Source: Metarhizium brunneum
Taxonomy: Eukaryota; Ascomycota; Sordariomycetes; Hypocreales; Clavicipitaceae
Length of the DNA stretch: 64,000 bases
Assembly (NCBI RefSeq): GCF_013426205.1
Contig: NC_089426.1
Coordinates: 124,001 to 188,000, forward strand
Direction of reading: 5' to 3'
The notes under the pieces are model-generated. The model did no database searches and was not told where the DNA came from. It saw nothing but the letters and a program-made list of their open reading frames with translations. A program made the position numbers and the translations under genes. This document shows positions 33,465-62,307 of the stretch, in pieces; positions within the stretch are counted from its first letter, which is position 1, and the number at the start of each line of letters is the position of its first letter.

Positions 33465-34090
33465 CTTGGCACTTTGGTTGACTCTTCAGTCTGCGATTTT
33501 GCCACAAGTGACTGGTTTGATTCTATTCGATTGCCAGCTGCTCTCTCGACGCCCAAATGCACACCCAAGATCACGTGGGTTGCTCGCACTTGGTTCAGAG
33601 CACGCTGTGTTTCCGAACATTGAAGGGCGGGCAAGGTTGGGGTGGCGCGGCACGTGCAGAAGCCATGTACACACATGTATACTCCGTACACGGAACAAAA
33701 TACCAGCACAATGCGTTGGCGAATACCATACCAGACAATACCAATTCAATAAATAACGTCGAACAGCCAGTGGTCGCAGCCAGCGCTCGCAGCCATCAGC
33801 GCGCCTGCCCGAAAACTTATGTCAATTATCTCTGATATGTGTACCAAACCTTAACGCCTCTCTCTTTACAAAACTCTTGTCTCATCTGTTTGAGCTATGG
33901 ACGGTATTTTGAAAATTCACTACTGACGGATTTTTCTCTTCTCTTCATCAGAGTTGTTTTATAGAAAAGAAACAACCAGCACATGAAACCATGGTCATAG
34001 AATTGAGCTCTTAAGATTCGCTCATAAGTATAGGGTAACTCTAAAAACGGCCGGATATGCCCTCCCAACCACGACGCCAAATCTTGCCCG
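33465..34090. other. Intergenic, 0.6 kb
   Basis: Tetraspanin promoter and the 3' flank of the glycosyltransferase. No gene was recognised. Confidence 0.5.
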
Positions 34091-35275
34091 CTATGGATAA
34101 TCCGTGAACCCTGCTGACGGCCCATCCCGATTTGTCATGTAGCCAAAGCGCTCCGGCTCCTCAAGCACAAGCGGAGGAATGTCTTTATTCTTTTCAATCT
34201 TGATAAACGTATCCTGTTGCCTCTCCCAGAGATCTCTTCCGTCACTCACGGCGGCAGCAATCTTGTCCTTGTCCCTGTACCGCTCCGCATTCATCCACCC
34301 ATGAGAGAAGCTGGACATTTTGTTGAGGAACTGCTCCATGGTAGCGAAGCAACTGCTACAATGCCAGCCTGCATTGTTCAGCACTCCCTTTTCCCGGCCG
34401 CGCAACAGGGCAAAGCCACCATCCCCGTTGCGCAGATTGGTAGGCTTGAGGGTGCGCGATCCTTGGTAGTAGGTGGCCTGAGGGTGCTGCCACTCGGGTC
34501 CAGCGTGCAGAAACTGGAAAGAGTAGTAGTATAATTTGGAAGCGAGCGTGAGACGCCGGGGGTAGTTGCAGGTGCGAAGCACAAGCACGGTTTGTGGACG
34601 GGGGATCTCATCAACGTCGGCCACGATAATAACGTCGCCTTGCATCGGACTTCTTGGCCCTTCCAATGTGAGCATAACCTGCTCGTACATGGCGTCTCGC
34701 TGCAAGTCTTCGTAATCCCACGCACGGTGGGGGTGAAATGAGGCTGGGAACGCCAACTCGTGATAAATCATCTTGTCATGGTAGCGGCGGAAGTAGGCCC
34801 AGTTATGCTTGATAACGAGGGGCTTCCTGTCACCCTGAAACGTCTTGGGCGATTCCACAATGATGAAGTAGTCGACTTGGTCGTATAGTGTGTTGAGTCG
34901 GATCTCGAGAAAGTCCAGCTCCGAGTTGACCATGACGAGGTCGTATACTTTGCGCTCACTGGAGACGCTGGGCGGCGCAAACACCGGATATCCATGGGCG
35001 GCGCAGAAGTCACGCGCCGCATTGGAGGCGTAGTACTCTGTAGGCTTCTGGCTATCATGTAAAGCCGCCTTTAACAAATCTAGCGGTGTGTTTGTGACTT
35101 GGTGAAAGCTACTATGGTGTAGCGTGGGTCTGAAGAAAAGCCACCAGATGAAGGAGAGAAGTCCTATGCCGAGGATTATTTTGGCGCGCCGTCGAGCTGC
35201 CATGATCAAAGATGCACAGAGGGGTATTAGAGAAGACGCTTGGAATAAAATGTATGGCAAAATCGCCATGCTCAT
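34091..35275 (-). CDS. GT17-like glycosyltransferase (beta-1,4-N-acetylglucosaminyltransferase type)
   Basis: Single exon, 394 aa from ATG 35275; a second Met (35203) gives 370 aa and a more usual type II start with basic MAARRRAK before the helix IILGIGLLSFIWWLFF. The lumenal domain shows the GT17 hallmarks: KVYDLVMVNSELDFLEIRLNTL, VDYFIIVES, NWAYFRRYHDKMIYHE and an acidic metal-binding DVDEIP. Near the C-terminus are AGWHCSSCF and SFSHGWMN. The family (MGAT3-like) adds GlcNAc to N-glycan cores in animals; the fungal substrate is unclear. It is probably Golgi-resident. The start choice is the main uncertainty. Confidence 0.88.
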   Translation of the reverse strand: MSMAILPYILFQASSLIPLCASLIMAARRRAKIILGIGLLSFIWWLFFRPTLHHSSFHQVTNTPLDLLKAALHDSQKPTEYYASNAARDFCAAHGYPVFAPPSVSSERKVYDLVMVNSELDFLEIRLNTLYDQVDYFIIVESPKTFQGDRKPLVIKHNWAYFRRYHDKMIYHELAFPASFHPHRAWDYEDLQRDAMYEQVMLTLEGPRSPMQGDVIIVADVDEIPRPQTVLVLRTCNYPRRLTLASKLYYYSFQFLHAGPEWQHPQATYYQGSRTLKPTNLRNGDGGFALLRGREKGVLNNAGWHCSSCFATMEQFLNKMSSFSHGWMNAERYRDKDKIAAAVSDGRDLWERQQDTFIKIEKNKDIPPLVLEEPERFGYMTNRDGPSAGFTDYP

Positions 35276-35440
35276 CCCCCTTTCATGTTGTCACGTGTTG
35301 GGATCGCCGTACGCAGCCTTGTTACGAGGTTGGGACGTGCACGGAATGGCGTATGCAGGTGCGTCATTATTATCCTACGCATCGGGCTGCGAGTAAATTA
35401 CGATAACAGGGATGTGGGGGTGTAATAGTTGCCCAGATGA

Positions 35441-37690
35441 TGCCGAGGACGAGACGTCCGGTGCAAACAATATGGTTTCGTAGGAGGCTGTTTTGGCCAG
35501 GGCTGCCGGGTGGCCAAGGGAGCAAACCTGATACCTAATGCTCGTAATAGGAGCGACCCTATGGATACTCTCGGCCACGGCACTCAAGTAGCTGGTATTA
35601 TAGCAGGATATGATGCCGAAAATGGCTTTATTGGGGTACTCCCCAACGCCACTATTCATGCCTACGCCGCTGAATCCGACTTGACAACTTCTACAGAAGA
35701 CACCATGATAGCAGCTTGGCTTGAAGCCTACAAGGATGGGGCACAAGTCATAGTCTCTAGTATTGACCTTTCAAGCAGTTGGGCAGAAAGGCCATCTGCT
35801 CTTGTTGTCTCGCGTATTACAGCAAGAGGCATTCCCTGCATTGTTGCTCTTGGCAATGGCCACTTGGGTCCATTCGACGCCGTGTCGCCAGGCACCGGCC
35901 GCGGCGCGGTGGCGGTGAACTCGGTGTCCCGCAGCCATGGCCGAATAACAGGCGAGTATGTCTATCGCATTAATAGCGACGCTGATATTGCCTTCGGAGT
36001 CAGGATGGGAGAGCCGCACGCCTGGGATACCGAGGAGCTCGCGGTACATGATATCGACGCCGACTACGGAGGCAATATAGACGACATGGAAGGCCCTTTG
36101 CCTGATTGCCAGCCGAGGCCGGGCGATGATGGTAAAAAAGACTTGACTGGGCGCGTAGCACTTATTCGCTACCCCGTTAGAGACGAACAGCACTGCATCT
36201 TCGAGCAAAGGGTGCTGAACGCAACGGCCCGCGGCGCGATCCACGTCCTGGCATAGTCGGGAAGAAACGCCCTTCCACTCTCTGCACCTAAAGATGCCAA
36301 GGGAATCGTCGCAATAAGCATGACAGACGCCACTGTTGGCGAAGCCTTGGTCAGAGCTCTCTCCGCTGGCATGACTGTCAGGGTGCGCCAGGTTGGTCCT
36401 CATCGCATCACAACAGGCAGCATTGCCAAGTTATCATCATACGGGCCAACTTATACCCTTGACATTAAACCCAGCGTGCTTGCACCGGGGGATGATGTGC
36501 GTTCCACGTTATACGGCGGTGGTTATGGAGGAGTGGCGGGCACGTCCTTTGCCGCGCCGCTCGTCGCCGGCATCTACGCTCTTGTTGGCGAGGCGCGAGG
36601 CACGTTTGACCCAGCTATTCTTGACAGCGTTATTATGGGAACGGCCGAGCCGCAATTCTCGAGTCACAGTCATTACTCTGAGGGCGCCCATGACTTCTTG
36701 AGTGTCGCGCAGCAGGGCGCAGACCTTGTCAAGTCCTGGGAAGCTGCTCACGCCACAACGCTTGTCGCTCCAGCTAGTTTCGCCTTCAATGATACGACTA
36801 ATCGTGTTTCTTCCATTACCCTTTCTATTAAGAATACGGCTGATACTACGGTCCAATACCAACTTACACATATCTCAGCCAAAACTCTCTATACTCTGGA
36901 TCAGAATTATACTACCAGAGGCACTGAAGAGATTGATGCTCCAGTCCAAATCTCCTTGAGTGAAGATACTATCACGCTTAGTTCTGGAGAGTCTGATACT
37001 ATTATTATCTCTGCCTCGGATCCTCAAGGGGTAGACCTTGAGCGTTTACCCCTATGGTCTGGCTGGATTGCTATTAATGGATCGGATAGCACTCGGTTAA
37101 CGGTACCGTATCTCGGTCTTGCGGGGTCACTCCGCGGCGCTCCTGTTTTCACACCAGGGATCAAGTCGGTATTGGCTCGTGGAAGATTTTATGAGGGTAA
37201 TGTTGGCGAGGGCTCTACCGTGCTTTTAAGGGGCCCTCCAGATACCACAGTCCAGCATACTGGCTTGTCACGTCGCTCTAGGGCCCGGGTGATACTGACC
37301 CATTTCGTCCTGGCTCTTGGCTCACCTGAGGCTCAGATCTATGTTGTCCTTCTTGATATTTGTCCCGATGCCGAAATAAAGCCAATAGCTCTAGAGCTAG
37401 ACCTTAAGAGAAGTTGCGTTCCCAAGACTAGCATTATACAGGTAGGCGAATTTCAGACTATTGGTCAGATTGCCAACTCTCCTTTCCGCTATATTGGCGG
37501 CCGTTCTATGAAGGAACTTTGGGATGGCTCTCTTTCATCAGGCCAATTTGCTCCTCCTGGTAGATACAAGCTTATGGCTCGAGCTTTATCTATCCAAGGA
37601 GATAGGAATATTCCATCTGACTGGCAGGTCGCTGAGACGACAGAGTTTGTTGTGGCGTATGAAGGTACAGGTAGCGCAGGCTCCGCTTAG
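35441..37690 (+). pseudogene. Subtilisin-like serine protease (S8) pseudogene
   Basis: One frame is readable from about 35483 to the stop at 37690, apart from a single in-frame TAG at 36254-36256. It carries the catalytic His block (DTLGHGTQVAGIIAG), an oxyanion-Asn block (CIVALGNGHLGPFDAVSPG), a PA-like insert, the catalytic Ser block (GTSFAAPLVAG) and a C-terminal beta-rich Fn3-type region. The first recognisable segment is GGCFGQGCRVAKGANL, which normally lies just after the catalytic Asp block. That block, the propeptide and the signal peptide are absent, and a TGA closes the frame at 35438. It is 5'-truncated and carries a nonsense codon, so it cannot give an active protease. The C-terminal half is unusually well preserved, which suggests recent decay. 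Confidence 0.85.
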
Positions 37691-38415: not shown

Positions 38416-41400
38416 CTAGTTCAACTTCACCAAAGTAGACATGGATGCAATCTTCTCGCACAACGCCGTGATAGACACGTTGGAAAGAACATCAAACACC
38501 GTCAGCTTAGCGTCCAGCGTCTTGAACATCCACTTGACCGTTTCCACGGCCACCAAGGAATCTACACCGTACGAGTGCAGTGGCCGGGAGGGATCAATTT
38601 CCGCCACGGAGCTCTGAAGGGTCCTTGCCACGCGCTCAAGAAGCACCGTCTGGACGGCGGCGGCGGCTTCAGCCACGGAATGAGCCTGAGAAAGCTGCGT
38701 TCGCACAGAAACCTTGCCGGCATCGGCGTCACCAGACCCAGCTGCAGACGAGGCACCGGCCGAGGTACGTGTCTGGGCCAGGATGGAGAAACGGGCATCA
38801 TCAAAGTAGAACGGCGTGCTTATACCGGCTGCCTGCGCAGACCGGGCCGTGGCCAGGCCGGTTGGGATCTGCACCACGGAGCGTTCAGTCAGGGGCTGTG
38901 TCGTCGACATGATGGCTGACTTGATGAGCGCATGGAACTCGGGCTCGCGGATTCCAAACGGCTCCTCCCACTCGCGGAGATAGTCGGTGATGCCGTTCTC
39001 GGCGAGAACACCCACGTCTCGCATGATGCCCAAGTCGATGGTGATGGCCCTCTGGCCCAGAGACTGCCGATGGTGTGCCATGGCATCCTCGTACGCGCCC
39101 GCAGCGGCGTAGTTGCTCTGCCCACGGCTTCCAAAGACGCCCGCAAAGGAACTCAGCGTGATGAAAAAGTCGGACACTGGGATCTGCTCGTGCAGGTTCC
39201 ACGTGCCCTGCACCTTGGGCCGCGTGCTTTCGGTCCACTGATCGTGAGCCATCCTCTCAAAGAGACCGTCACGGAGGACCATGGCACACTGAATGACACC
39301 CCGGATAGGCCCAAGAGCCGCCCGGCATTGCTGGACGACGCGGGATACGGTGTCGGCGTCGGACACGTCCCCTTTGCAGACGAGGACGCGCACTCGATGC
39401 TGCATCTCGAGTTCCTTGACGAGGGCGCGCGCCTCGCTGCTTGCTGCGCCGGAGCGAGAGAAGAAGCACAGCCGGCGCGCCCCAAGCTGCACCAAGAGCC
39501 GTGCAAGACTCCGGCCCAGGCCGCCGAGTCCTCCGACGAGGAGGTAGGTGCCAGAGTCACTTAGGCTGAGGTCCGGTCTGACGACGGGGACAACATCTCC
39601 CGCCTGGAATGTCAGCACGAGCTTCCCCAGGTGCTGGCCCGTTTGAATCTTGCGGAATGCCGCTTCCACCTGAGACGCGGGATACGAGGTGAGCGGCGTC
39701 GCGGGCTTGAGAGCGCCGGAACGTACAAGGGCCATTGTCTCTCGGAGAGCCTCTCCCATGAGGTCTGGCCGCTCCTTTTGGACACGGTTCAGGTTGAAGA
39801 AGACAAACGTGGCATCCTGGAGGAAGGGCTTCATGTCCAGGCGTGCGTTGTCCAAGATGTCCTTCATGCCGAGCTCGACAAAGGTGCCAAAGGGGGCCAG
39901 GCAGTGCCACGTCTGCCGGAGAGCTTCCCCGGCAAGCGAATTGACAACAATATCGACTCCGCGGCCTTTGGTCATGCGCTTCACGCCCATGGCAAAGCTG
40001 GCGTCTCGCGAGTTGAAGATGTGGTCGTGGGGAACCCCGTACGTTTCGTGCACAAGCTTCCTCTTCTCCTCGGAACCAACCGTCGCGAAAACCTGTAGTC
40101 CTAGATGTCGAGCAAGCATGAGGACGGCCTGGCCAACACCACCTGCGGCAGCGTGAACGAGGACTGACTGGCCGGCTGTTGCGCGCGCCGACTTGACGAG
40201 TGCGTACCAAGCTGTCGTGTGGACGAGGAGAATGGCCGCGCCCTCTTCAAAGCTCATGGTATCAGGCATAGGCATAGCGTAGTCGGCACGTACGCGATGG
40301 ACTGTCCGGTGTGCTCCGTGAGCGAGGAAGACGACTCGGTCTCCCGGGCGGAGGCGCGTCTCTGAAGCATGTACACGGCGAACGACACCAGCGCCCTCGA
40401 ACCCGAATGCCCGGTCCGGGATCTGTCCCAAGGCGACCATGACATCTCGGAAGCTGCACAATGTTAGTAATGGGAACCATGGTGGGATAATCAGTGACAC
40501 TTTGAACTTCTGGGGAGACTCACTTGACTCCGGAGGCCTTGACGTCGACTTCCACTTCGCCTGCTTCCAGGGGCTCCAAAGCCAACAAATCGGGCTCAAA
40601 GCAAACAGAGTCCAGCATGCCAATCTGGCGCATGCACAGCTTCAGTCCTTCTGGCTTCTCCTGTAGCGTAGTCGCAACCGCGGCCTTTTCTCCCTGGCCC
40701 AGCAGCTGCGCAATCTCCTTGTTTCGGGCCTCATCCTCGACCAGGCGGCTGACAAGCAGCGCGTCTGAATGCCACCGAAACTCTGTATCGGGACCACTAT
40801 ACCGGAAGACACGAGTGACCAGGTCGGCGTAGCTGTCTGCCCCGGGGCCAGGCAGATCAGTCACCTCAAGCGTGCGTATATGGACGTCAGCCGCCTCGTT
40901 GCAAACGCTGCGAGACAGGCCCGTGATCAGAGCAGCATCGGGCCCCAGGGGACCACTCACCCAGAGGGTGCTCTCGGCATTCGAAAACAGCGACTGCAGG
41001 GCCGCGAGATCCTCTGGTGCCGGGTCCTTGAGAAGCGCAGACTCCAAGTCCGTCAGGACGATGCAAGGCTGGCCCTTGAGCTGCGACACGTCGGAGCCCC
41101 AACGGACGCGCTTTGTGGGAATCGACGCCTTCTCAAGATTCTGGGCCACGGCTGCCGCGATAGCTTGGGCCGTGGCAGATGCATTGGCGGATTCTATGAG
41201 GGTGACTTGCTGCGGCTGGCGATTGTCACTGTTGGCCGACTCGGCGGCATTGCCTGTGAGACTCAGGCGGAAGTGTCCGTGAACGGCGGACTCTGTGTCC
41301 ATGTCAATGAGTTTGAGAGCAGGCGTCAGTCCCGAGCGCGCGAGACACGATGTCCAGCTGCTGCTGCTCTGGGCAACGTCTAGGTTTCTGCAGAAGAGCA

Positions 41401-44400
41401 ATGTTAGCAACCTCCTTTTGAATATGGCTCCGACCGCAGCCAGCCGAAGCCAACAAGAACAAAAGCGTCCAGATGTCATTACAAGTACGTACCTTGTCCA
41501 CTGAAGACAGCCCAGTGCTGTGCCCAAGTAGAGCCCAGGCTCGCCGACTTCTGCGACGATGATCCTGCCCCCTGGGTTCAACAGCTTGCGCGCGTTGCGC
41601 AAAACGACCTCTAGCTTTGCGTGTATGAAGCCAGGGTCAAATATGAGAATGACATCGTGCTTTCCCAAGGCCTCGTCGAGTTTCTTTGTAAAGTCTGCAG
41701 CGGAGACTTCAATGTCGGAAGCCTGAGACCCAAACTGGGCCCTGACGCGGTCGGCGACGCCCTCTTGCGATACTCTAATAGCGTACTGCGCTGTCTGGAG
41801 AATCTTATGTCGACTGGGCAGAGCTGCGAAGACAGAGTATGGCACCGAGTCCAGGCTCAGCTCAAGAATCGACAGGTCGGGCTTGGCATGATGGCGAAGG
41901 TCGATATACTACGTCGTGTATTAGCACCCTGCACTTGGCGTCTTGCATGCGGCATAGAAACATGAAACTTGTACTTACTGCGTCGAGTGACTTTAATAGA
42001 ATGGACAGAGCGCCGTTTTGCTCCACCTCTCTCAACATCTTGTCTTGTTGTTCTGGTGATGGAATGCTTCCTTCTCGCACTGCGGTCAAGGCGTCTCTCA
42101 TTGCGAGCATGTCACCGCCGGGGGATGGACGTTTGGATGATGAAGCAGCCCCATTCGTGAGTTTTGCAGACTTGGCCGACAGCCAGTCAGACAAGTTTGC
42201 CATGGCAGGATCCACGGCAACACGAGGTAAAGTTTCTTCAAGGTGATGGACATGATTGTTCAGCTCTGTGGCGCGGGCGACGTTGGACGCACCCTCCTGC
42301 TTGACACAATGGTCAAGATATGTCCGTAGCTGCTCACCGGTCAGCAAGTCGATTGCCGGCTTCCACTCGAGACGGAAGCCAATCGGCCGACTCTCTGCTG
42401 ACGCCGCCTCCGACTCGGTCATGCGCCCCCCGGATACGTCGGCGCAACGGAACCCCTTGATTTGCACAAGTGCTCTGCTGTTTTGGTCATCCAGCATGTC
42501 AATGTCGGAGATGAGCTCTCTGAAGCCGTGAGGAGAGGAGCGCGAGACTCCGCGAAGCAGAGTGCCAGGGGTGTTTGGTGTGTCTGCTGCCACGACCAGC
42601 TCGTCGATTGTCGTTGGGACCATGGGGCCCGGAAGCAACGAGTCCTCGAGCGCCGCAAAGGCAAGGTGGAAGACGGCATCCAACGTCCCCGGATGGATGA
42701 CGTGAGGATGGCTGCGGTATGCGGGCGGCACGAGGCTGTCCACGGCCGGAATACGGACGGCGCCGATACACTGGCCCTGGCCCGTTCTCCGAATCTCCGT
42801 CACGTTTGCAAAGGTTGGCCCGTAAACAAGGCCAAGAGAAGCAAGGCGCGAGTAGAACTTGCCCACGTCGACAGACTGCTGGCAAGAGACGTACGTTTTC
42901 TTGTACCAGTCACAAACCATGTCCGACTCCAGGGCACGCTCGCGGTCCATGGCCGAGTCTGCGTCGGCGGCATACTCGATCATGATGAGGCCGGAGCAGT
43001 TCTGACGCAAATCGCCGCCGTCAATAGATGAATTGACGGTAAACTCCATCCAGGACGACTGGCTGCTGCCCGGCGCGAGAAGATGCGGTCGGAGTTGCAG
43101 AATGGCCTCGGCGGTGCTGTCCTCGGTCACCACCAAGGCGGCGTCGAGGTGCACGTCGCGCAGTCGGAATGCGCTTACTTTGCGCTGCTCGCCTGCATGC
43201 TGTGAAGCCGCTTCGATGGCCATGATCAAGAAGCCGGCCCCGGGATACAGGATGGACCCCTGAATCTCGTGGTCCCGGATCCAGGGCTCCTCCTCCAGCC
43301 TCACCATGCCGCGCCAGTATCTCTCGCGGGCGCCCATCGTGGGACACGGGCTTCCCAACAGCGGCAGGCGGGCGTGCTTGCGCAGCCGATACTCTCGGGA
43401 AAGACGCGACTCGGCCCAGAATCGAGTCGAGCGGTTCCAGGGATAGGGGGGCAGGTCGACCAACGGACTCGGCTGCGGCCCGGACTCCAAGTTTACGCGA
43501 GACATGGCGACGGGCACACTCGACAGGACGAGCTCGCCGGCGCACGCCAGAGCCGTCTTTACGGCGCTCTGTCCCCGGGAGAGGACACTCGTGTACTTGA
43601 GCGCGGACACGCCCTGGGCCTGGAGGATCTGCTGGACGGGCCCCTTGAGCGCGGCGTGCGGCCCAATCTCGACGAGCACATCGACGGCCGGCTTGTCCCC
43701 GTCGGAGAGGAGGCTCGACACGGCTTCGGAGAAGCGCACCGGGGAGACGAGGTTTTGCACCCAGTTGGAAGCGCCGAGCTCCGCGGCGTCGATGACACGG
43801 CCCAAGACGCTCGAGTGCATGGTGCGCCCCGGACGCGCCGGCAGCGGCGCAAGATCCTTGAGGAGCTCAGCGTACGCGGAAGAAACCGACTGCATGTGGT
43901 GAGAGTGATAGGCCACGTCCACCTGCAGCTTGCGCCCAAACACGCCGGCCTCTTGGACCATGGCGAGAAGCTCGTCGATGCCCGCGGCGTCCCCGGATGC
44001 CGTGACGCTGGTCGGCGAGTTGATGCAGGCGACGACGACTCGTCCCCGGGTCAGCTTGGCCAGCCACGCCTCGACCTCTTCGGGGGAAGCCCCGACGGCC
44101 ATCATGGCCCCCCTGCGATCCCCGTGCGTCTGCTGCATCTCCGAGGACAGGATCCCGCGGTAGTAGGCCACCCGCAGACTGTCGTGCTTGGTCAGGGCGC
44201 CCAGGCAGTACGCGGCGGCGATCTCGCCGCTCGAGTGCCCGGCCACGCGCGCGGGACAGACGTTCCAGTCCTCGAGCAGGTCGACGGTGGCGATTTGGAG
44301 AACCGTGCAGAGCGTCTGGCTGTAGGCCGCCTCGGAGAGCCGCGACGTGGCCTGCGGCTTGGCCAGCTCGTCGACGGCAGACCAGGGGCACCCGAGGGCG

Positions 44401-46263
44401 CTGCGCAGGAACTCGTCCGACGCCTCGACGCTCTGGCGGAACACGGGGTACGCCATCAGCTCGACGCCCATGCGAGCCCACTGCGCGCCCTGGCCGGTGA
44501 AGATGAAGCCGAGCCGGGGGGCCGAGGCGGCGACGCGAGTCTCGGGAGCCGCCCACGCGCCGCCCTCTTGCTGGAGCGCCTGGAGCAGCTCCGAGGGCGT
44601 GGAGGCTGTGGCGTACGTCTGCCATTGGAGATGGGACCGTCGACTGGCCAGGGTGAAGGCCAGATTGTGTAGGTATGCGCCGCCGTCTCTCGAGTCCTGC
44701 GGCCACGACTTGAGGAGCTGCTCGAGATGCTGGGCCAGCGACGAGCGGACGCGCCCCAGGCCCTCGCGATCGTTTGCGCGGAACAGAAATAGCCGTGGCG
44801 GCTGGTCATTTGGCACGGCTTCATGCATTGCCGAAGTCAAAAGTCTCCGTGTCTGGGGATGTGTGCGGGTGTAGTGGTGGCCCCTGAGTTTGCGTGCCTC
44901 GAGATAATGGGCCGCGTCGTCGAGGATCAGATGCGCGTTTGTACCGCCATATCCAAAACCCTGGGTGCTGAGCCGCCGCAGGCCTTCGGTCGGCCAAATT
45001 GTTTGTGTCGCAGGCACCTTGAGATGCCATTCCTCCCAGCGGATCTTGGGATTCAGGACGCGGACGCTCGGCGTCGGGGGTATCACGCCCGTTTCCAGGA
45101 TGTAGACGCACTTTATGAGCGAGGCCAGTCCCGCGCAGGCTTCGAGATGCCCGATATTTGCCTTGACTGATCCCACCAGCAGCTCGTCCGACGCCGTGCG
45201 GTGCTGGCTGAATGTGCGGGCAATGCCTTCCATCTCACGCGTGTCGCCGGCCTGGGTGCCCGTTCCGTGAGCCTCGACGTAGCGCGTCTCCGCAAGCGAG
45301 AGGCCGGCGTTGCGGTACGTTTCTGCAATGAGGGAGGCTTGCGCCTCGACGCTGGGGATGGTGAAGCCCTTTGTATGGCCGTCCTGGTTGCATCCGCTGC
45401 CACGGATGACGGCGCGGATCGGGTCGCCGTCGCGGAGGGCGTCGGCAACTCGCTTCAGGATGACGACGCCGATGCCGTCGCCCCTGGCGTAGCCGTCGCC
45501 CGACTCGTCAAAGCTCTTGCACTGGCCGTCGGGGGCCAGAAACTGCTGGTTGGAGAGGTACAGGAACATGTCGGGGTTCAGCAGCAGGCTGGTGCCGCCG
45601 ACAATGGCGCTCTCCGTCTCGCCGCTCCATAGGCTCTGGCAGGCGAGATGGCAGGCGACCAGACTGGACGAGCAGGCCGTGTTGACGGTGAAGCTGGGCC
45701 CGCGCAGGTCGAAGAACCACGAGACGCGGTTCGAGGTCGACGTGTTGCTGGTGCCCGTTGCGGTGTACAGAGGCGCCGTCTCGGCATCGCGGTACAGCAT
45801 CTCCCGGTAGTCGCTTGTGAAGCTGGCCATGAAGACGCCCGTCCGCGAGCCCGCGAGCTCGTCGACGCGGAGGCCGGCGCTCTCCATGGACTCGTACGTC
45901 ACCTCCATGATGATGCGCTGCTGGGGGTCCATGGACTCGGCCTCGACCTTGGAGAGGTTGAAGAAGTTGGCGTCGAAGGCGGCCACATCTTGCTTCATAA
46001 AATGCCCTCCCCGGGGCAGACTGGTGTTGATCTTTTTCTCACCGTAGTGAAAAGCATCCGGCGTCCACCGATCCGGATTCTCAGAGTATGCATCTGTCTT
46101 GTGGTCAGTGGCAGGGTCCAGCATGAGGCATGGCGGCACGGTACATACTACGTCCATTGCAGATGAAATCCCAAAAGTGCTCGGCGGTATCTGCTTCGCC
46201 CGGGAAGCGGCACGACAAGCCGACGACGGCAATGTCGTCTCTTGATGGTGCTGGCGCTTGCAT
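38416..46263 (-). CDS. Highly reducing polyketide synthase 2
   Basis: Five exons: 46263-46149, 46093-41979, 41908-41493, 41387-40524, 40453-38416 (7548 nt, 2515 aa); introns 55, 70, 105 and 70 nt. The KS begins at DDIAVVGLSCRFPG and has Cys179 in NTACSSSL, EAHGTGT and NIGHLEA. The AT has FTGQGAQWARMG and GHSSGE (Ser659). The DH has RDHEIQGSILYPGAG (His980). The methyltransferase region (about 1370-1580) keeps its flanks but has lost the SAM glycine loop. A structural KR half, then the ER (from about 1838, HAAAGGVGQAV near 1938), KR (VGGLGGLG near 2147) and ACP (YGVDSL, Ser2469) follow; no TE. It should make a fully or partly reduced, probably unmethylated chain. It diverges from the discrete TE gene and probably supplies the starter for the NR-PKS (inference). 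Confidence 0.95.
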
Positions 46264-47018
46264 GGTGCACGTCCGTACCGAACGGACTGTGTGCAAGGTC
46301 ACAATGAATAATGTTTGCAAATACTAGGCAATACAAGGGAAGACGAGGGTGATGAAGAGGAGAGTGATGCAAGTCGGAGACTGCTGAACTTGAAGATATA
46401 CCCATCAACAATCAAGGCGCTCCCAGCAGCACCCGCGACTTTTATTTGAGCCAGCCATGTCTCGCAGGTCGTGCCTATCGTGCACATCGCCAATCCACAG
46501 GGTCCATAGCGTGCACATGGTCCTCATGGTTCCATCAATTGATGTCCGTCGGTGGCCCGGACAGATGTCGCACGGCCACGGCCCCGCCTCGACGCTGCGT
46601 CCGTGAGCCGGTGGCGTGTAAGCAAGAGGCTCCGACGAGATGAAAACAGGCACGGGGCATTCCATGTTCCCGAGGCCCGGCTGAAAAAGCTGGAGCCTCC
46701 AAAAACTCGCCGTCGGCATTTCATGGGGCCCAAACACTCAGGTAATGCTCGTTTCAGGTCGATCATGGTGTGCGGCGAGTCGCCCGCCGCCTTGTCACGC
46801 CCGGGGTGCATTGTTCAAACGTCGCGTCGAATGTCTAATTTTGGCACTCTTGGGAAGAAATACCAGTTCCAGTCGACATGCATTCTTGCGAGTTGTCAAC
46901 ATGTATAATGTCGAGGCCATGTGCCAGCCCCCGGCCCTGACAACTTGCAAGAATCATCAATACCTTCCCTCCTTGCCCATTTGCCTCAACATCATTCATT
47001 CACATACATCCTTTCGCC
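46264..47018. promoter_or_regulatory. Bidirectional promoter, HR-PKS 2 / thioesterase
   Basis: 755 bp lie between the two divergent start codons. Two inverted repeats share the half-site GTCCG/CGGAC: 46271-46287 (spacer 7, the arms extend to GTCCGT/ACGGAC) and 46544-46562 (spacer 9). Opposed CCG/CGG half-sites are the usual form of Zn2Cys6 targets. The first repeat lies only 8-24 nt before the HR-PKS 2 ATG, so it could also form a 5' UTR hairpin. Confidence 0.65.
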
Positions 47019-48200
47019 ATGGCCGTCACCGTGTGGCAAGATGCGCTCAACATCATTGCGCAGGAGAGCGGGCTGGAGCCCGCAGAAATCATCGAGACGG
47101 AGGACACGGCGTTTCTCACGCTCGGCATCAATCAGATCCTCGCCACGGCCATCCTGGCGCACCTGAGAGGGCCTCGTGGAGAGCCTCTCCCACGAGACAT
47201 CTTTGACCAGAAGCCCACGGTTGGTGCGTTCCGCCGCTTCTACGAGACCCCTATTCACCTGGACATTGCTCCCGTCGCGGCACCCGCGCCGCCCAAGCTG
47301 AAGCGCGTGCCGTCGTCCTCTGTCCCGCTGTCCATCGTCTTGCAAAACAACCCGGCGTCGAGCCGGCACACGGTGTTCCTCCTCCCGGACGGCAGCGGCT
47401 CGGCCATGGCCTACGCCAACCTCCCGCCCGTCCACCCGGCCGTCTGCATCGTCGGCATGAACAGCCCGTACCTGCGCGACGCCGGCTCGTACCGCTGCTC
47501 CGTGGAAGACCTGGCATCGCAATGGGTCCGTGAAGTCTACCGCCGCCAACCACGGGGGCCGTACATTGTCGGCGGGTGGTCGGCCGGAGGCTACTACTCG
47601 TACGAGGTGGCCAAGCGCCTCCTGCAGGACGGACACGCCGTCGCCAAGCTGATCCTGATCGACTCGCCGTGCCGCACCGTCTTTGAGTCCCTGTCCATGG
47701 ACGTCGTCAACTACCTCTCCTCTCGAAACCTCATGGGCAACTGGGGCTCTCCGGAGATGCCCGAGTGGCTGGTGCAGCATTTCCGCTCGACGCTGGCCGC
47801 CGTGGGCAAGTACCGCCCGCGGCCCATCGGCTCGGCTGGCAAGATGCAGACGTACATCATCTGGAGCCGAGACGGCGTGCTGGATCACGACGCGCTGGCC
47901 AGGTCTGGACTCGACACGAGCGTCAAGGTGTCCCGATTTCTGCTGCAGGGCAAGGATGACCTGGGGCCGAATGGATGGGACGACCTGCTGCCCAGCAAGG
48001 ACATGGCTATTGCGACGCAATCGGGGACGCACTTCACCATGATTAACAAGCCTCATGTAAGTATTTTGACACGTGGCCCAAAAATGTATTTCTGCTAAGT
48101 GAAGTTGCAGGTGGCGCAGATGAGCGATCTCTTGCGTGATGCCGTGATTGGCATCGGCTCTGACCGACAGTCGCACTGGCAGCGAGTGAGCGAGTCATGA
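47019..48200 (+). CDS. Discrete pseudo-ACP + thioesterase didomain protein
   Basis: Two exons: 47019-48056 and 48111-48200 (1128 nt, 375 aa). Residues about 1-75 have an ACP-like layout (ALNIIAQESGLEPAEI; DTAFLTLGINQILATAIL; PTVGAFRRFYE). The carrier motif LGxDSL reads LGINQI, so the phosphopantetheine Ser is Gln39. After a Pro-rich linker comes an alpha/beta-hydrolase TE of the NR-PKS C-terminal type: TVFLLPDGSGSAMAY, GWSAGG (nucleophile Ser188), LILIDSP, YIIWSRDGV, LGPNGWDDLL and GTHFTMI (catalytic His). The protein looks like the detached end of an NR-PKS. It is expected to release the NR-PKS product by hydrolysis or lactonisation. It diverges from HR-PKS 2, and the cluster's NR-PKS lacks a TE. 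There is no signal peptide, so it is presumably cytosolic. Confidence 0.93.
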
Positions 48201-48702: not shown

Positions 48703-49988
48703 CTACTCTATGGCAATTCTCTTTTGCAGATTCTCTGCCGACTCTATCAAACTTTGCAACGGCTGTCCAAAAAGGCCCTGCCCTCCTCCTGGGGGCTCTA
48801 AAACTGAAAATAGCCGGCTACAACCCGGACTTGATAGAGACGACGGTGATGGTTCAGGGGTGTGCAACTCGAACGCAGGGGGCAGCCCGCCGGGCCGGTT
48901 CATTGGAGAGGTGCGCTCTTGAATTTCAGCCAGGATATCAACGACAGAGTCCATGCTGCGCAAGAGCAGAGTGCGCATAATGGCTTGGGATTCGCCCCGG
49001 GCCAGCTCGTAAGCCACGGGCATTTGACACGAGCCATTCACGGGGGTCGCCTGGAGAGAAAAGGCAACCTGGCCGCTCAGATCCAGATTGTTGCTTATCC
49101 ATTCCATTATGGGCAGTACCATGCGGATCTCGACGATGCACAGGAGGAGCGTGTCGCTGTCAGCCGATTCCATGCAGGTGGTGCACTGTAAATGGCGCTT
49201 CCATGCCGACACGCCCTCGCGGACCTGCGAGATGGCCACGGCTGCCTGTAGGGGACCACCACGTCGGGCGTGGACTTTAAGCTGCACAAACAGAGCCGCC
49301 AGTTGTTGCAGGCAGTCGCAAGACGCACATGGCTGTCGACAGCGGGAAGAGGACAAGGGGCTGCGTAGGTGGTGGACATCTTCAAAGTCGAATGCTCGAA
49401 GCGGTTGCCTCTGCGGAACGGGCAGTGCCACAGATGGAGGCAGAGAGTATTGCGATGAATTCGCGGTGTAGATGAGCCCCGTGGCGCTGGAGGTATCATC
49501 TACGTCGGCAGACCTTGGATCTAAACAACCCATCTGTTTGAAGTCAGAGGCCGAGCATATATAAAGCATCCAAACACACATACCAGCAGGGCATCCATCT
49601 GATGCGCATGGAAGCCCCTCCATTCGGGGGCGTTGATTTCCATGTCTGTTGGGAGATGGCACGGAGAGGAAGACGCCGTGGAATCGGCCGACGTGGATGC
49701 TGCAGGCGTCGAGCTCAAGCTGGAAGCGGGCGGCTCGCCATCAGCGCCGGCGGCTTCCCGCATGTGTGCTCGCAGGCGTTGGCGTGTCACCTTGTTCTTG
49801 ATGCCTCGGGGCCGTCCGGTGCGGTTTGACGAGCTGTAGTGGCAGCGCGCGCCCAACTTGTGGCATCCGCTGCACGGATTCCCACCACTGCACTTGACTT
49901 TGCTCTGGTGGCACGAGTCGCAGGCTGATCGCATCCTGCACGAGGACGGGCTCCGGGACTGCTGCATGTCCTGCTTGATGTCGGTCAT
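48703..49988 (-). CDS. AflR-type Zn2Cys6 cluster regulator
   Basis: Two exons: 49988-49584 and 49533-48703 (1236 nt, 411 aa), intron 50 nt. The zinc cluster is Cys23-x2-Cys-x6-Cys33-x5-Cys39-x2-Cys-x6-Cys49 (CDSCHQSKVKC, CSGCHKLGARC), followed by the RTGRPRGIKNK linker typical of the AflR/sterigmatocystin-regulator group. A Ser/Thr-rich spacer leads to an AflR-like C-terminal domain (CDCLQQLAALFVQLK; CMESADSDTLLLCIVEIRMVL). Such proteins are pathway-specific activators of aromatic polyketide clusters. I took the ATG at 49988; the frame stays open upstream, so an earlier start is possible. It most likely controls HR-PKS 2, the TE and the NR-PKS (inference). Confidence 0.92.
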
Positions 49989-50733
49989 CTGTGTTGATTC
50001 GGGGTTGGTGGTAGTGCGGTTGGAATTTGGAGCCTTGACGCGATGATGCCCATGGTGATGAATCAAAAGGCGGGTCCAAGGTATTTTAGGAGACGGGTTG
50101 ACATGGAAGCAATCGACCAGACGCCAAGAGTGACAGACGTGGAGGCATCTGCGACGGCCCACAACATGCCATGCATCTTGCTGCAGCTGCGAGATGGAAG
50201 ATCGTCGGCATGGGTCGCAGACAGGGATTGTGGAAGCCACCACATGTCGGGTGCGTGTTGTTTGGCCGTGCACTCGACATTTGAACTGAGTGATGCGTCC
50301 ACGATGCGCAAGACTGGGACTCCGGCGTGACGTGGGGCGTGACGTGGGGCGTGACGTGGGGCGTGTGACTGGGGCGTGGGGTGGGGCGGCCCTACCCGAG
50401 ACCAGGATGCCTGGCCAGGCACAGATCGTTGCCGACATGCAAAACACGCAGAAACATGGACCTTGGCCCCCACAAGATACCACGGCCCAGTGTTTCATAG
50501 ATAGGGCTCCCGACATGAAGACTCTTTGTGCTCGGATGGCGCTAATTTGGGCGAGATGAAGCCCCGGCTTTATATCAACTGATATGTATACCGTCGATTC
50601 ACCGTACTTACCACAGCACGTTATCGTGTAGTGCCGCCCTGTTCAGCCGCAAGACTGCCACTCCTCAACAACAGCCAACGGCCTGGCGAGCCGTAACAAC
50701 AAAAGGCCATCGTCGACAGCATCACTTGTCAAC
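49989..50733. promoter_or_regulatory. Divergent promoter AflR-type regulator / DUF3112, with 12-bp tandem repeats
   Basis: 745 bp between the two start codons. The notable element is three perfect tandem copies of GTGACGTGGGGC (50327-50362), trailing into degenerate GTGGGG units up to about 50388. Each copy contains TGACGT, the core of CRE/bZIP-type sites. Confidence 0.7.
50327..50388 (+). repeat. Tandem 12-bp repeat (GTGACGTGGGGC)3 plus degenerate tail
   Basis: Three exact copies, then GTGTGACTGGGGC and G/T-rich remnants. It sits about 340 bp before the start codon of the AflR-type regulator and about 350-400 bp before the DUF3112 gene. Confidence 0.9.
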
Positions 50734-52059
50734 ATGTCGGCACAGGTCCTTCCCAGCGAGCCGGCCCTCGCTGGGGGGCAGATGGAGATGCCGCCGCCTG
50801 AGGTGAAGAAGTTCCTGGGAGGCATTCCAACGCCCACGCTCGACGTTCCCGTCACAATCGTCTTTCTCGTCCTGTTTTCCCTGGGCGCCTACTTGCACAT
50901 CAGCGTCTACAAGGCCAACGCCAAGCGCGGCCACAAGTTCCTCCTTTCGAGTCTCATGTTCGACTTCTGCATGGTCCGAGTCACCACCTGCCTCTTTCGC
51001 ATTCTCTGGGCCTTTATCGGCCTCCAGGCGCCCGGCATCGTCCTGGTCGCCAATGTCTTCCAAAACGGCGGGTAAGTCTTTATCAATCCATCTCCCGCCA
51101 TCTCCTATAGCACCAGACTGATCGCCATGCGTCTCAGCGCCGTCGTCGTCTTCGCCGTCAACCTCTTTTTTGCGCAGCGCCTCATTCGAGCCATGCATCC
51201 TTCCATCGGCTGGCACCCCGTCTTCAGCCGCTACTCCCTGTTCCTGATCTGGACCTGCCCGGCCGTGACCATCATGAACATTATTGCTGTTTGCGTCAAC
51301 TTCCTGGTACCCGCCCGGGCGCAAGGGGCTGAGACGGTGCTGCAAGTAGGCGCCTGCTGGAACATGATGCTGGTTGTCACGCCTCTCTTGTGGCTGTTCA
51401 TCGCGAGCGCCAAGCCGGGCCCGACGCCCGAGAACTTTGGCACTGGTGACTTCCGCGCCAAAGCAAGTTTGCTCGTCTTTAGTGCCTCCGTCATGACGGT
51501 TGGAGCCGCCGTGAGGTTAACCATAGCCTTCAACCACAACGGCCCCGAGCAGCTGTTCAGCAAAGCCTCGCTGTACACTACGCAGTTTATTCTCGAGTAC
51601 TTGGTGGTCGCCGCATACGCCTTCTTCCGCATTGATCAAATCTATCACATTCCCAATGGGTCAAGTGGACCGGGAGACTACTCTTGGAATGGGTGCCCCA
51701 AGCGTGGGTTATGGACGCCAGAGGACATTGAAAGAGAAATTGGCAAGCTTGGTGTCCGCTACGATATTCTCACCTCTAGAGGCATGAACAAGAAGGGGCC
51801 TGTATTTGCGTTGCTGTACCCGGCCTGCAGTGAGCAGCCTTTTGCCCACGACAACAAGGACTTACCACAAGTGCCTCCAGAGTACGTGGATGGCTTTCTC
51901 CCTCCGAGGCCTCGAAGGGTGAGCCGCATGGACATTCTTACTGGTAGCTATTCCCCCGAGCGACCTCCGCGGTCGAAAAGGACGACCATGTTTATGACCA
52001 AGGACGTGGAGTTGACTCCAACAATAACATCTTCACCATACCAGAAATTTTACGATTAG
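50734..52059 (+). CDS. DUF3112-family integral membrane protein
   Basis: Two exons: 50734-51071 and 51138-52059 (1260 nt, 419 aa), intron 66 nt; splicing joins FQNGG to AVVVFAVNLFFAQR. Around seven hydrophobic helices follow a polar N-terminus (PTPTLDVPVTIVFLVLFSLGAYLHI onward). The pattern YKANAKRGHKFLLSS, FDFCMVR, AQRLIRAMHPSIGWHP and FRIDQIYH matches the fungal DUF3112 family as I remember it. The C-terminal 130 residues are cytosolic and polar, ending in basic/Ser-rich sequence. The function of the family is unknown. Its place between the AflR-type gene and the monooxygenase suggests co-regulation, possibly in transport or sensing (inference). Confidence 0.87.
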
Positions 52060-56835: not shown

Positions 56836-59800
56836 ATGAAACTGCGTGTCGCAAATTTCCTCCTCTTTGGGGACCAGACCGTAGAGAAGCTCCCAGCCAT
56901 TCGGCACCTGGTGAGCCATGGCTCATCCTCACCACTCGTCCAGAGATTCCTGCGCGAAGTGTGCGATGCTGTACAGCTTCAGGTCAGCAAGCTGCCTCAG
57001 CACTCGGAGCAGCGCAGCAACATTGGGAATTTCGACAGTATCCTTCGACTAGCCGAGAATAATGCCCGGCTGGAGGAGCCCAACGAGATTATTGCCACCG
57101 TCTTGATGAATATCGCACGTCTGGGAGAGCTCATTCTGTACGCTGGCGAAACAATCCCATGCCATTTGCTATCATTCCGTGTCGGCTGACCACGTCCAAA
57201 CTAGATATGCAGAGCAAGACCCTACTGTTCTCGCCTCCAAAGGCAACCGCAACTGTATTCTGGGATTCTGCACCGGCGAGGTGGCCGCTGCTGTGGCCGC
57301 CGTCGCGCAGGACACCAACGAACTCGTTGAGCTGGGAGTTGAGGTGACACACATCATCTTTCGCATGGCCCGCGAACTCAATCGCCGGTCTCTCATGGTT
57401 GACCGTACCAACGGCCCCTGGGCCAGGACAATACTGGGCATTTCAGTCGATCGCGTCCGGGAAATCCTACAAGACTTCCACGAGAACCAGGTCAGTCATG
57501 CAAGTCCCAAATTCCCACCCGCCGCGTGATTCAGCGTTTGCTTATAGTATTGGTTCTCACAGTCTATTCCTCGCGCGCGACAAGTCTGCATTGGCTTCGT
57601 CTCAGATGGCTGGTTGACACTCTTTGGCCCGCCCACAACTCTGCAACGGCTTTTAGAATGGTCGGCAGAGTTGGAAGACGCTCCGCAAATCGACACGGAC
57701 GCCCGCGGAGGCGTGCACATGGAGACGCTGCCAGAAGTTGACCCGGATCGGATTCTTGGCTCATCGCCATGGCTGGACCGGGCCCCCGTGCACACGGCCA
57801 CCATAATCTCTCCCTACACGTGCAAACCGCGGCAGCAGAAGACGTTGAGGGGGCTTCTGGAGGAAATCATTGCAGATGTCGGGCAGAGGACGTTGAATTT
57901 GGCCACGTCAATGAACGCGGCCCTTGAGCTCGCACAGGCAGACAAGATCCGCCTTGTCATGCCCGGCTACACGAGCCACGACGTCTACTTTCAAAAATTG
58001 CTGCAAAAACGTGGCATAGAGTATTCCGTCATGTCACACGGGGACCATTTGTCGTCAGGTCCCAGCCGACAGGGTTCAGGCCTTGTGGCTGTCGTCGGCA
58101 TGTCTGGGAGGTTCCCAGGGAGCGGCGACATCAACGCATTTTGGGAGGGTCTTTTGGAGGGCAAAAGATATATCCAAGAGGTCAGATTCAGTCCATGCAG
58201 CCCCTCTTACCCCTATTTTAGTATATCGCAGGGTCACTCACTCATGACAGATTCCAAATACACGGTTTGACCTGGAGCAATGGTACGATGCCACGGGAAA
58301 ACAAAAGAACTCTACCCTGGCGCGGACAGGAGCCTTCCTCGACAAGCCGGGCATGTTCGACAACCGCCTATTCGACATGTCGCCCAGGGAGGCCATGCAG
58401 ACAGACGTCCAGCACCGGCTGCTCATGACAACCAGCTACGAGGCACTGGAGATGTCGGGCTACTATCCCGACGGCACGCTTTCGACAAACAAGGACCGCG
58501 TCGCCTCCTTCTTTGGCCAGACGTCTGATGACTGGAGAGAGGTGGTGGTCCACCAAGGGGTAGACATCTACTTCGCCACGGGAAGCTGCCGCGCTTTCGG
58601 ACCAGGCAGACTGCATCACCACTTCAAATGGGGAGGTCCGTCTTATAGCGTCGACTCGGCCTGCTCTTCCAGCATCGCAGCCGTCGGTTTAGCGTGCTCG
58701 GCGCTCCTCGGCCGCGAATGCGACATGGCTGTGGCTGGTGGAGGATCCCTCCTCCTCTCCCCATCACCCTTCTCGGGGCTAAGCCGTGGCGGTTTCCTGT
58801 CCGCTCATGGAGGGTGCCAGACGTTCCACGACAATGCCGACGGTTACGTCCGTGGAGAGGGAGTTGGCGTGGTCGTTCTCAAACGGTTGGAGGACGCGCT
58901 GGACGACCAAGACAACATCCTCGGCGTCGTCCGGGGATCCGGACGCAACTACAGCAGTGATGCTTCTTCCATGATGCATCCCTCGGCAAATGCCCAGAAA
59001 AAGCTGTACTGCGATGTGCTGGAGCAAAGCGGTGTAGACGCCAACAGCATCTCGTACGTGGAGATGCATGGAACCGGGACACAGGCCGGAGACTTTATGG
59101 AAATGTCCTCGGTCTTGTCAACATTTGCAGAAAAGCGAGGCTCGGATAATCCGCTCATTGTTGGGGCCCTGAAGGCAAATATTGGCCACGGGGAAGCTGT
59201 AAGTTTCTGACAAGAGTGTCTTTGGAAAGATTCCTGTGCTCATGCTCTATAGGCGGCCGGCGTTTGCGCTCTTATCAAAACCCTCATGATGCTCCAGTCT
59301 CGACAGATCCCCCCCCAGCCCGATCTTCCTGGACCTATTAACCACCGCTTTCCTGATCTAGCAGCCCGTAATGTATACATCGCGGCCCGCAACATGAGAC
59401 TGGAGGCCAGTCCGGTGGCCAAGGGCACGCTACGCGTGTTTCTCAACAGCTTCGACGCCTCGGTAAGAACGAACCCTCAAGGTCAGTCACGCGTGATGCC
59501 CAGGCTTACACGATGCGTTTTAGGGAGGAAATTCGTGCTTGCTTCTTGAAGAAGCTCCGCCACGGGCCGTCAAGGATGCAGACCCTCGAGGTCACCACGT
59601 CGTGACGCTTTCAGCCCGTTCCCAGAAGTCACTCATTGGCATCAAAGAGAGGTATCTGGCTCATCTGCGCCAACATCCGGGCACCAAACTGGCCGACTTG
59701 GCCTATAGCACAAGCGCTCGACGCATTCATGGGTTATTGCGGTACGCCATTGCCGCATCTTCCATTGACGAGGTCGTGCAATGCCTGGAGACGGATCTCG

Positions 59801-62307
59801 CCCAGGGGAAAACACCACGTCAGCCTCCGGCAACACCGACGGTAGTCTTTACATTTACCGGCCAAGGCGCACACTATGTCGGCATGGGGGCAAACTTGTG
59901 GGAGACGTCTGCCACATTCCGCAATACGCTTCACGACTACCAGACAATGGCCAGTGCTCAAGGCCTCCCCCAGTTCCTGCATCTCATCACAGACAGCAGC
60001 ACACCCGCGCCACAGTCAGGCCCGGATACTGTGCAGGTACAGCTGGCCATGGTAAGCTTAGAACTGGCCCTGGCCAAGCTCTGGCGCTCCTGGGGCATCC
60101 AGCCAGCCATGGTCTTGGGCCACAGCCTGGGCGAATACGCGGCCTTGTGCGTGGCCGGAGTCTTGTCCGTGAGCGACACTCTGTACCTCGTCGCCAAGCG
60201 AGCACAAATCATGGCCGGAGCCCTGACGCCGCACGAATACGGAATGCTGGCTGTGAATCTAAGCGTTGCTGACACGCGGGAAGTGCTCTCGTCTGGCGAG
60301 CATACGTCCTGCGCCGTGGCTTGCATCAACGCGCCCAAGATGACAGTGGTGAGCGGCTTGCGCTCCAAGCTGGACGATCTCCAGGACCAACTCAAGTCGG
60401 ACGGCACCCGGTGCACTCCCCTATCTGTTCCCTACGGCTTCCACTCCAGCCAGCTTGATCCCATCTTGGGCCAGTTCGAAGAGGCCTGCCAGGGGGTGAC
60501 CTTTTCCGCGCCGAATGTCCCGGTCGTTTCCACGCTCTTGGCTACGACAGTCCGGGAAGAAGGAACATTCTCTCCGGAGTATCTGGCACGACAGGCGCGC
60601 GAACCCGTCGACTTTGTCGGGGCATTGGGCGCGGTGCAGGAGCACAAGCTTCCCTCCCTGACCTTCCTCGAGATTGGGCCCGATCCCGTGTGCTCGGGTC
60701 TTGTGAATGCTACGCTAGGTGCCGATGAGGCTGCGTCGCGCTGCGTTGCCTCGATGCATCGCGGAAAGGCCAACTGGGCGTCGATATCGTGCAGCTTGAG
60801 GGATCTCTATACGGCGGGTGCCGCCATTGACTGGCCCGCACATCACCGGGATTTCAAATCATCGGTATCCCTGCTGGACCTCCCAAAGTACTCGTTTGAC
60901 GAGAAGGAATTCTGGGCCTCGTTCCCCGACCGAGACCTTCAGACCATTGGAGAGGTCCAGACCAAGCACAGCCAGCCGCCTGCCATTGTTCCCTCGGTAC
61001 AAGGGTATTGCACGACGACTCTGCAGCGGATCACGAGGGAAACAATCGAGCCCGATGGACTGTCGGTGACTTTTTCATCAGACCTAGCCGACCAGCACCT
61101 ACGTGCAGCAGTGCGAGGGCACGCCGTGGCCGATGTGGAAATTTGCTCCAGCAGTCTGCTCTTGGACATGGCACTCTCCGCGGCCCAATATGCTTACATG
61201 AAGCATTCTCCTGGTCAGAAAATGCCAGTGCCATTGACGGTCCGCAACTGCTATTTCCACCGGGGTGTTGTCTTGACGGACAAGGCCCAGACCGTGGAAG
61301 TCACCGTTACTCTTACATCCTCGGCCAAGACTGCGGATATCCGGTACCACTGCCGCACGCCTGACGAGTATTACGAGGTTGGGGCCTGCCAGGTCGTCTT
61401 GAAGCCAGCGAGCAAACCGGACCAAGCCGGCTTCCTGGTTCGGTCCCGCATGGCTGCTCTCAAGGCGTCCGCAAGTCACCGGCTAGGCAGACGCGCAGTC
61501 TATCGATTATTCGACAACGTTGTGCGCTATTCCGAACAGTACCAGGGGCTAGACAGTGTCCACCTGTCAGAGGACATGCAGGATGCCGTGGCGGAAATCA
61601 ACATGGCACACGTCCCAGCCGCGGGCGGCCATTACCTCCACCACCCGTTCTTGCTCGACTCGATTGTTCATTTGTCGGGGTTCTTGGTGAACAATGGGCT
61701 TCGCTATTCCAGCGAGTGGGCTTGCCTTTCCACCGGCTTTGACGAGTGGCACCTGCTCAAGCCGCTTGATCCCACCACTGTGTACACCAGCTACACCTTC
61801 ATGGAGGACTCTCGGTCGACGAGCAATCTGGTAACGGGCGATGTATACGTCTACGACGGAGAGGAGCTGGTCTCGGTGCTGACGGGGCTGCAGTTCCAAA
61901 AGATGAAGAGGACGGCACTCACCCATCTACTGAGCCCCCCGACAGTCGGTAGCATGGCTGCCAAGCCGAGTACATGTATGCCAACCAAGGCACAAACGGA
62001 GCTGTTGCCGGCTCAAGCCAGAGTGGTCGGCTCGCCGGTTCCCACACCACCGGCTACAGCAAGTGTTGATGACGGCGAGGGGGAGAAGTTCGACTTGGTC
62101 AATACACTCTTCTCCATTATTGCGCGCGAGGTGGGCGTGGAACCAAGCGACTTGGAGGGCGACGTCAACCTGGCGAATTTGGGCATAGACTCCCTCATGG
62201 CCATTACCATAATTTCGGTCATGCAGCAGGAAACAGGTGTCGAGTTGCCGGGGACCTTTTTCCTCGACAATGCCACTACGACGGCAGTGATTGCGGCGGT
62301 AGGGTAG
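56836..62307 (+). CDS. Non-reducing polyketide synthase (SAT-KS-AT-PT-ACP, no TE)
   Basis: Six exons: 56836-57137, 57205-57490, 57563-58180, 58251-59198, 59253-59462, 59524-62307 (5148 nt, 1715 aa). The starter-unit ACP transacylase has its nucleophile in GFCTG (Cys123). The KS starts near 372 (LVAVVGMSGRFPGSGD) with Cys540 in DSACSSS, MHGTGT and NIGHGEA spanning intron 4. The malonyl AT has FTGQGAHYVGMG and GHSLGEYAAL (Ser989). The product template domain carries the catalytic pair His1321 (RGHAVADVEICSSSL) and Asp1500 (HHPFLLDSIVHLSGF). One ACP (LGIDSLMAI, Ser1678) ends the protein only 37 residues later; no TE, reductase or methyltransferase follows. An active SAT implies an ACP-bound starter, probably from HR-PKS 2. 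Release must occur in trans, most simply by the discrete TE at 47 kb. Confidence 0.95.

What the first reader, a model, noticed from the sequence alone, without database searches (positions are those of the whole stretch)
47019..48200. Thioesterase split from its PKS, still carrying a dead ACP-like domain
Seen: a 375-aa protein has an ACP-shaped N-terminus in which LGxDSL reads LGINQI (Asp38 to Asn and Ser39 to Gln by position), then a complete NR-PKS-type TE with GWSAGG. Known: TEs of NR-PKSs normally follow one or two active ACPs in the same polypeptide. Inference: this is the detached ACP2-TE end of an ancestral SAT-KS-AT-PT-ACP-ACP-TE enzyme. The dead ACP may be kept as a docking domain that presents the TE to the NR-PKS or mimics the carrier. 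I know of no described system built this way, but cannot search.
Basis: partly seen in the sequence, partly recalled or inferred. Interest (0 to 1): 0.8.

Follow-up and report, generated by a model that had tools for sequence, protein, structure and literature searches.

The report
Separate thioesterase with dead carrier domain
The gene makes a separate release enzyme for a fungal pathway to olivetolic-acid-like compounds, already studied in a sister species; its relatives look like an old partnership in which one protein kept the working carrier and the other kept the working scissors.

Summary
In detail: 47019-48200 (+) encodes a 375-aa protein, an ACP-like domain without its serine (LGINQI) followed by a complete NR-PKS-type thioesterase. 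The window is chromosome 5 of Metarhizium brunneum ARSEF 4556. Neighbours are an HR-PKS and an NR-PKS that stops right after its one active ACP. I take it as the orthologue of the M. anisopliae OvaA/OvaB/OvaC set, published as making olivetolic and sphaerophorolcarboxylic acids, so a described system exists.

Of 20 NR-PKSs linked to a separate ACP-TE, 8 have no TE of their own but 12 still carry one: 7 with a broken catalytic triad, 5 with the triad but an altered nucleophile elbow. The separate TEs form one clade next to pigment-type NR-PKS TEs, not next to the partner's TE (p-AU 1.1e-5). The dead ACP is family-wide: serine in 2 of 119 listed homologues, TE triad intact in 121 of 121. All 20 linked NR-PKSs fall in one clade of 61 sampled enzymes, none with a canonical TE. 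So the pair looks like reciprocal decay: one partner keeps the carrier, the other the TE. Docking by the dead ACP is inferred.

The parts
47019..48200 (+). psiACP-TE gene (OvaC orthologue), exons 47019-48056 and 48111-48200, 375 aa
47019..47252 (+). serine-less ACP-like domain, residues 1-78; LGINQI at residues 35-40
47328..48056 (+). thioesterase domain in exon 1 (residues 104-346), triad S188/D215/H338
48057..48110 (+). intron
   Evidence: GT..AG; homologues read across it
56836..62307 (+). NR-PKS (OvaB orthologue), 6 exons in my model, 1715 aa: SAT-KS-AT-PT-ACP, stop right after the ACP, no TE
   Evidence: the next 8 kb hold no complete open frame of 200 aa or more
38416..46298 (-). HR-PKS (OvaA-like): KS, AT, DH, ER, KR, ACP matches, no methyltransferase match; outer limits of three open frames, exons not modelled
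48703..50642 (-). likely Zn2Cys6 regulator; domain found in 49524-50516; outer limits of two open frames, gene not modelled
51127..52059 (+). DUF3112 protein (weak, 23.9 bits against cut-off 23.3); membership in the cluster not shown

Best explanation
This is the OvaC orthologue of M. brunneum. The HR-PKS builds a short acyl starter; the SAT of the NR-PKS (GFCTG) takes it; KS, AT and PT extend and cyclise it to a 2,4-dihydroxy-6-alkylbenzoyl thioester on the single active ACP (LGIDSL); the separate psiACP-TE hydrolyses it off with S188/D215/H338. The psiACP cannot carry a chain because it has no serine; most likely it is kept as a docking or positioning domain that brings the TE to the NR-PKS. 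Shown here: domains, catalytic residues, loss of the serine, no fused TE, co-location, phylogeny. Reported in print for M. anisopliae: release by OvaC. Inferred: the same product here, and docking.
For: Published set OvaA (HR-PKS), OvaB (NR-PKS), OvaC (thioesterase that releases the product): passages of PMC12134893. The window's NR-PKS is 99% identical to an M. anisopliae NR-PKS (P0121). In 121 aligned rows (window and 120 listed of 414 hits) the TE triad is invariant, and the ACP serine stands in 2 of 119 rows with a residue there. The ACP-like part is present (60 or more of 77 columns) in 118 of 121 rows; PF00550 matches 40 of 44 rows scanned. Distances among separate TEs and among NR-PKSs go together over 20 linked pairs (Mantel r 0.946, 0 of 9999 permutations as high).
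Against: The original 2021 paper is not held, so I could not compare the published accessions or see whether it describes the dead ACP; the link to OvaB/OvaC rests on identity and gene set. The ACP part varies more than the TE (mean pair identity 0.33 against 0.54), which weak constraint would give too. No interaction data; no complex was modelled. The Mantel result also follows from plain vertical descent.
Confidence: 0.85

Rival explanations
1. One reading: the gene is the cut-off ACP2-TE end of its own partner NR-PKS.
For: It is homologous to an NR-PKS ACP-TE end, and the partner here ends at its ACP.
Against: 12 of 20 linked NR-PKSs still carry a TE-like end beside a separate ACP-TE. Separate and partner TEs held as one clade: log-likelihood 76 lower, p-AU 1.1e-5. 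Separate TEs group with pigment-type TEs (98). The short ACP alone cannot decide (psiACP with partner ACP p-AU 0.20).
Confidence: 0.06
2. The psiACP is a relict without a job; the TE finds the NR-PKS ACP by itself.
For: ACP part less conserved than the TE; no functional data.
Against: Kept in 118 of 121 rows, with LG and several core positions conserved while the serine is gone.
Confidence: 0.3
3. It is an editing (type II) TE that clears stalled chains, not the normal release enzyme.
For: Five linked NR-PKSs keep S, D and H in their own TE, so a second TE there could be for editing.
Against: In M. brunneum the NR-PKS has no TE, and M. anisopliae OvaC is published as the releasing enzyme.
Confidence: 0.07
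4. The ACP-like domain still carries a chain in some species.
For: M. album reads LGVDSI and Cladobotryum LGINSM.
Against: No serine in the window, nor in 117 of 119 rows; the partner ACP has its serine.
Confidence: 0.03

Closest known systems
OvaC of Metarhizium anisopliae (OvaA/OvaB/OvaC pathway; Okorafor, Chen and Tang 2021, not held; seen through passages of PMC12134893)
   Same: Separate thioesterase working with one HR-PKS and one NR-PKS; same genus; the NR-PKS here is 99% identical to an M. anisopliae one.
   Different: Activity of the M. brunneum proteins is untested. The passages I saw call OvaC only 'a thioesterase'; I recall a psiACP-TE label from the 2021 work but no call shows it.
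TE of PksA (norsolorinic acid synthase, 3ils) and pigment-type NR-PKS TEs (Pks1/PksP)
   Same: Same TE family and fold.
   Different: Those are fused behind active ACPs; this one is a separate protein behind a dead ACP.
Metallo-beta-lactamase-type TEs of group V NR-PKSs (PMC5591372, passages)
   Same: Physically separate release enzyme for a TE-less NR-PKS.
   Different: Another enzyme family. Here an alpha/beta hydrolase TE with an ACP-like domain.

Membership tests
OvaC-type separate psiACP-TE | separate gene, not fused to a PKS | tested here: met
   own ATG, intron and stop
OvaC-type separate psiACP-TE | complete NR-PKS-type TE with Ser/Asp/His | tested here: met
OvaC-type separate psiACP-TE | N-terminal ACP-like domain without the serine (counted here as a family trait; whether the 2021 paper defines it so is recalled only) | tested here: met
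   serine in 2 of 119 rows
OvaC-type separate psiACP-TE | beside an HR-PKS and an NR-PKS without a TE | tested here: met
OvaC-type separate psiACP-TE | releases alkyl dihydroxybenzoic acids | not testable with these tools
   published for M. anisopliae
NR-PKS-fused TE | in one polypeptide with KS, AT, PT and active ACP | tested here: not met
group V metallo-beta-lactamase TE | metallo-beta-lactamase fold | tested here: not met
   Pfam and Foldseek give alpha/beta hydrolase thioesterases
type II editing TE | clears stalled chains, not needed for release | not tested
   needs an assay

The most novel reading that the evidence does not exclude
Across a clade of at least 61 sampled ascomycete NR-PKSs, carrier and release functions have been split between two proteins by reciprocal decay: the NR-PKS keeps an active ACP and loses its TE (triad broken, elbow altered, or gone), while a partner that came from a separate, pigment-type ACP-TE lineage keeps an active TE and loses its ACP serine. 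The dead ACP is then a docking part. A foreign TE took over from a resident one, which decayed and was discarded several times.
Probability: 0.6. Interest if true: 0.62.

Novelty: new member of a known kind. Interest (0 to 1): 0.45.

Why it matters
It corrects the claim of an undescribed system, and it gives OvaC a wider setting: separate psiACP-TEs occur in many ascomycetes (one search lists lichen-forming genera among them), and their NR-PKS partners can carry TEs that domain searches still report but that have lost catalytic residues. That matters for predicting release chemistry in HR-PKS/NR-PKS clusters and for rebuilding such pathways, since the separate gene is probably needed. It also makes a testable case of a pseudo-carrier domain used as an adapter.

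Tried and rejected
Considered and dropped: origin by cutting off the partner's own ACP-TE end; metallo-beta-lactamase TE; chance resemblance to an ACP. Led nowhere: AlphaFold2 of the ACP piece alone (pLDDT 56); the ACP-only tree for the origin of the psiACP (psiACP with partner ACP p-AU 0.20, with pigment ACP2 0.54, with pigment ACP1 0.73, none rejected). That tree and the profile comparison held one row, taken from P0187, that is a stray motif and not an ACP; the profile comparison was repeated without it, the tree was not.

Papers: ten searches, of which I saw the listings. No listing named a dead ACP on a separate fungal TE or reciprocal decay. I also saw passages of PMC12134893, PMC7842015, PMC5591372, PMC9963667, PMC8902786, PMC9505985, PMC10219323, PMC11514314 and PMC12470490. 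Most subscription papers are not in that library, the 2021 OvaABC paper among them, so I cannot say that it is not in print.

Limits of the counts: 120 of 414 separate ACP-TE hits and 120 of 3436 NR-PKS hits were listed and used. Seven of the 120 NR-PKS rows had no ACP motif and were left unclassified. Among the 17 TE-less rows two are named 'partial' in their records (P0144, P0176), and gene-model errors are possible in others. 'Broken' is read from an alignment column; the histidine is the least safe in divergent rows. The clade of 61 was picked after seeing the tree and is one clade, so the Fisher value printed is not a test of independent events and I do not use it.

Full report
What is there. 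The gene at 47019-48200 (+) has two exons and encodes 375 aa. Its first 78 residues match the ACP family (CTB1 ACP 6fik; profile-profile probability 99.8 against 43 NR-PKS ACPs, with five shuffled controls at 2.7 or less) and are modelled as helices. The active-site motif reads LGINQI. The rest is a thioesterase whose best match among solved structures is that of PksA, with S188, D215 and H338 in place.

Where it is. The assembly has 37,771,916 bases in 7 contigs. The M. brunneum ARSEF 4556 assembly has 37,796,881 bases with a mitochondrial genome of 24,965 (PMC7842015, passages); the difference is the same number, and contig 7 has the length printed there for chromosome 7, 2,842,132. The window is C5:124001-188000 of that strain.

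Neighbours. On the minus strand at 38416-46298 lies an HR-PKS with KS, AT, DH, ER, KR and ACP matches and no methyltransferase match. At 56836-62307 my six-exon model gives a 1715-aa NR-PKS with SAT (GFCTG), KS (DSACSSS), AT, PT and one ACP (LGIDSL), then a stop (Pfam). The 8 kb beyond the window hold no complete open frame of 200 aa or more. Among the other own-genome matches to this TE, five genes (L002, L003, L004, L005, L006/L008) lie with PKS frames; L007 and four weaker matches were not placed.

What it is. M. anisopliae OvaA (HR-PKS), OvaB (NR-PKS) and OvaC (thioesterase) together make sphaerophorolcarboxylic acid and olivetolic acid in A. nidulans and in yeast (PMC12134893, passages only). 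The window's NR-PKS is 99% identical to an M. anisopliae protein, so I take the three genes as the M. brunneum orthologues. The original paper is not held. I recall that it draws OvaC as psiACP-TE, but no call shows this.

The dead ACP is a family trait. In 121 aligned separate ACP-TEs (the window and 120 listed hits of 414), the serine position holds serine in 2 of 119 rows with a residue there: M. album (LGVDSI) and Cladobotryum (LGINSM). The TE serine, aspartate and histidine are invariant in 121 of 121. The ACP-like part is nonetheless kept in 118 of 121, and 40 of 44 scanned rows still match the ACP family.

The partner's own TE has decayed. Of 120 listed NR-PKS homologues (of 3436 hits), 97 have 200 or more residues after the last ACP motif, 16 end at or just after the ACP, and 7 had no motif and were left out. 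With the window's NR-PKS added, 114 rows were classed: 50 intact, 33 with a broken triad, 14 with the triad but a changed elbow, 17 without a TE. In a tree of 118 rows (4 pigment NR-PKSs added) one clade of 61, support 100, holds 33 broken, 17 without TE, 11 with a changed elbow and no intact one; outside it stand 50 intact, 4 pigment and 3 with a changed elbow. Examples seen in full: Penicillium hispanicum P0126 and Rasamsonia P0130, both with alanine for the serine. Absence of a TE needs 4 changes on that tree.

Where the separate TE came from. In a 77-row tree the separate TEs are one clade (SH-aLRT 99) that groups with pigment-type TEs (98), while the partner TEs form their own clade (99). 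Holding separate and partner TEs together costs 76 log-likelihood units, p-AU 1.1e-5. A FastTree of 222 rows agrees: 121 separate TEs in one clade (0.915), next to four own-genome NR-PKS TEs. The quick method was used and some partner rows have long branches, so the exact sister is less sure than the rejection. The ACP part alone decides nothing.

How it works, most likely. The NR-PKS ACP holds the finished ring thioester; the separate TE, positioned by its dead ACP, hydrolyses it. The chemistry is published for M. anisopliae; the positioning role is inference. What fits less well: the ACP part varies more than the TE (0.33 against 0.54 mean pair identity), and 5 of 20 linked NR-PKSs keep S, D and H in their own TE.

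Novelty. The gene is a new member of a published kind. What I did not find in the listings of my searches is the clade-wide reciprocal decay and the foreign origin of the separate TE; the library is partial, so this may be in print.

Noticed in passing
P0005 (Metarhizium album), P0012 (Cladobotryum mycophilum): The only two of 119 separate ACP-TEs with serine at the active position (LGVDSI, LGINSM). M. album lies among serine-less relatives in the TE tree, so this may be a regain.
   Followed up: partly
1-7397 (+): A second HR-PKS, cut by the window start, with a methyltransferase domain (KS, AT, DH, MT, ER, KR, ACP). PKS matches also lie upstream of the window at C5:113-116 kb.
   Followed up: no
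13113-20865: FAD-dependent oxidoreductase, MFS transporter and Zn2Cys6 regulator in a row, perhaps the rest of the first HR-PKS cluster.
   Followed up: no
22127-37690: M43-type metalloprotease piece, protein kinase, GMC oxidoreductase, family 17 glycosyltransferase and subtilase between the two PKS regions.
   Followed up: no
P0126, P0130, P0131, P0132, P0137, P0148, P0184: Seven linked NR-PKSs whose TE triad is broken are all still listed with the Pfam Thioesterase family, so a domain hit alone overstates TE activity.
   Followed up: yes
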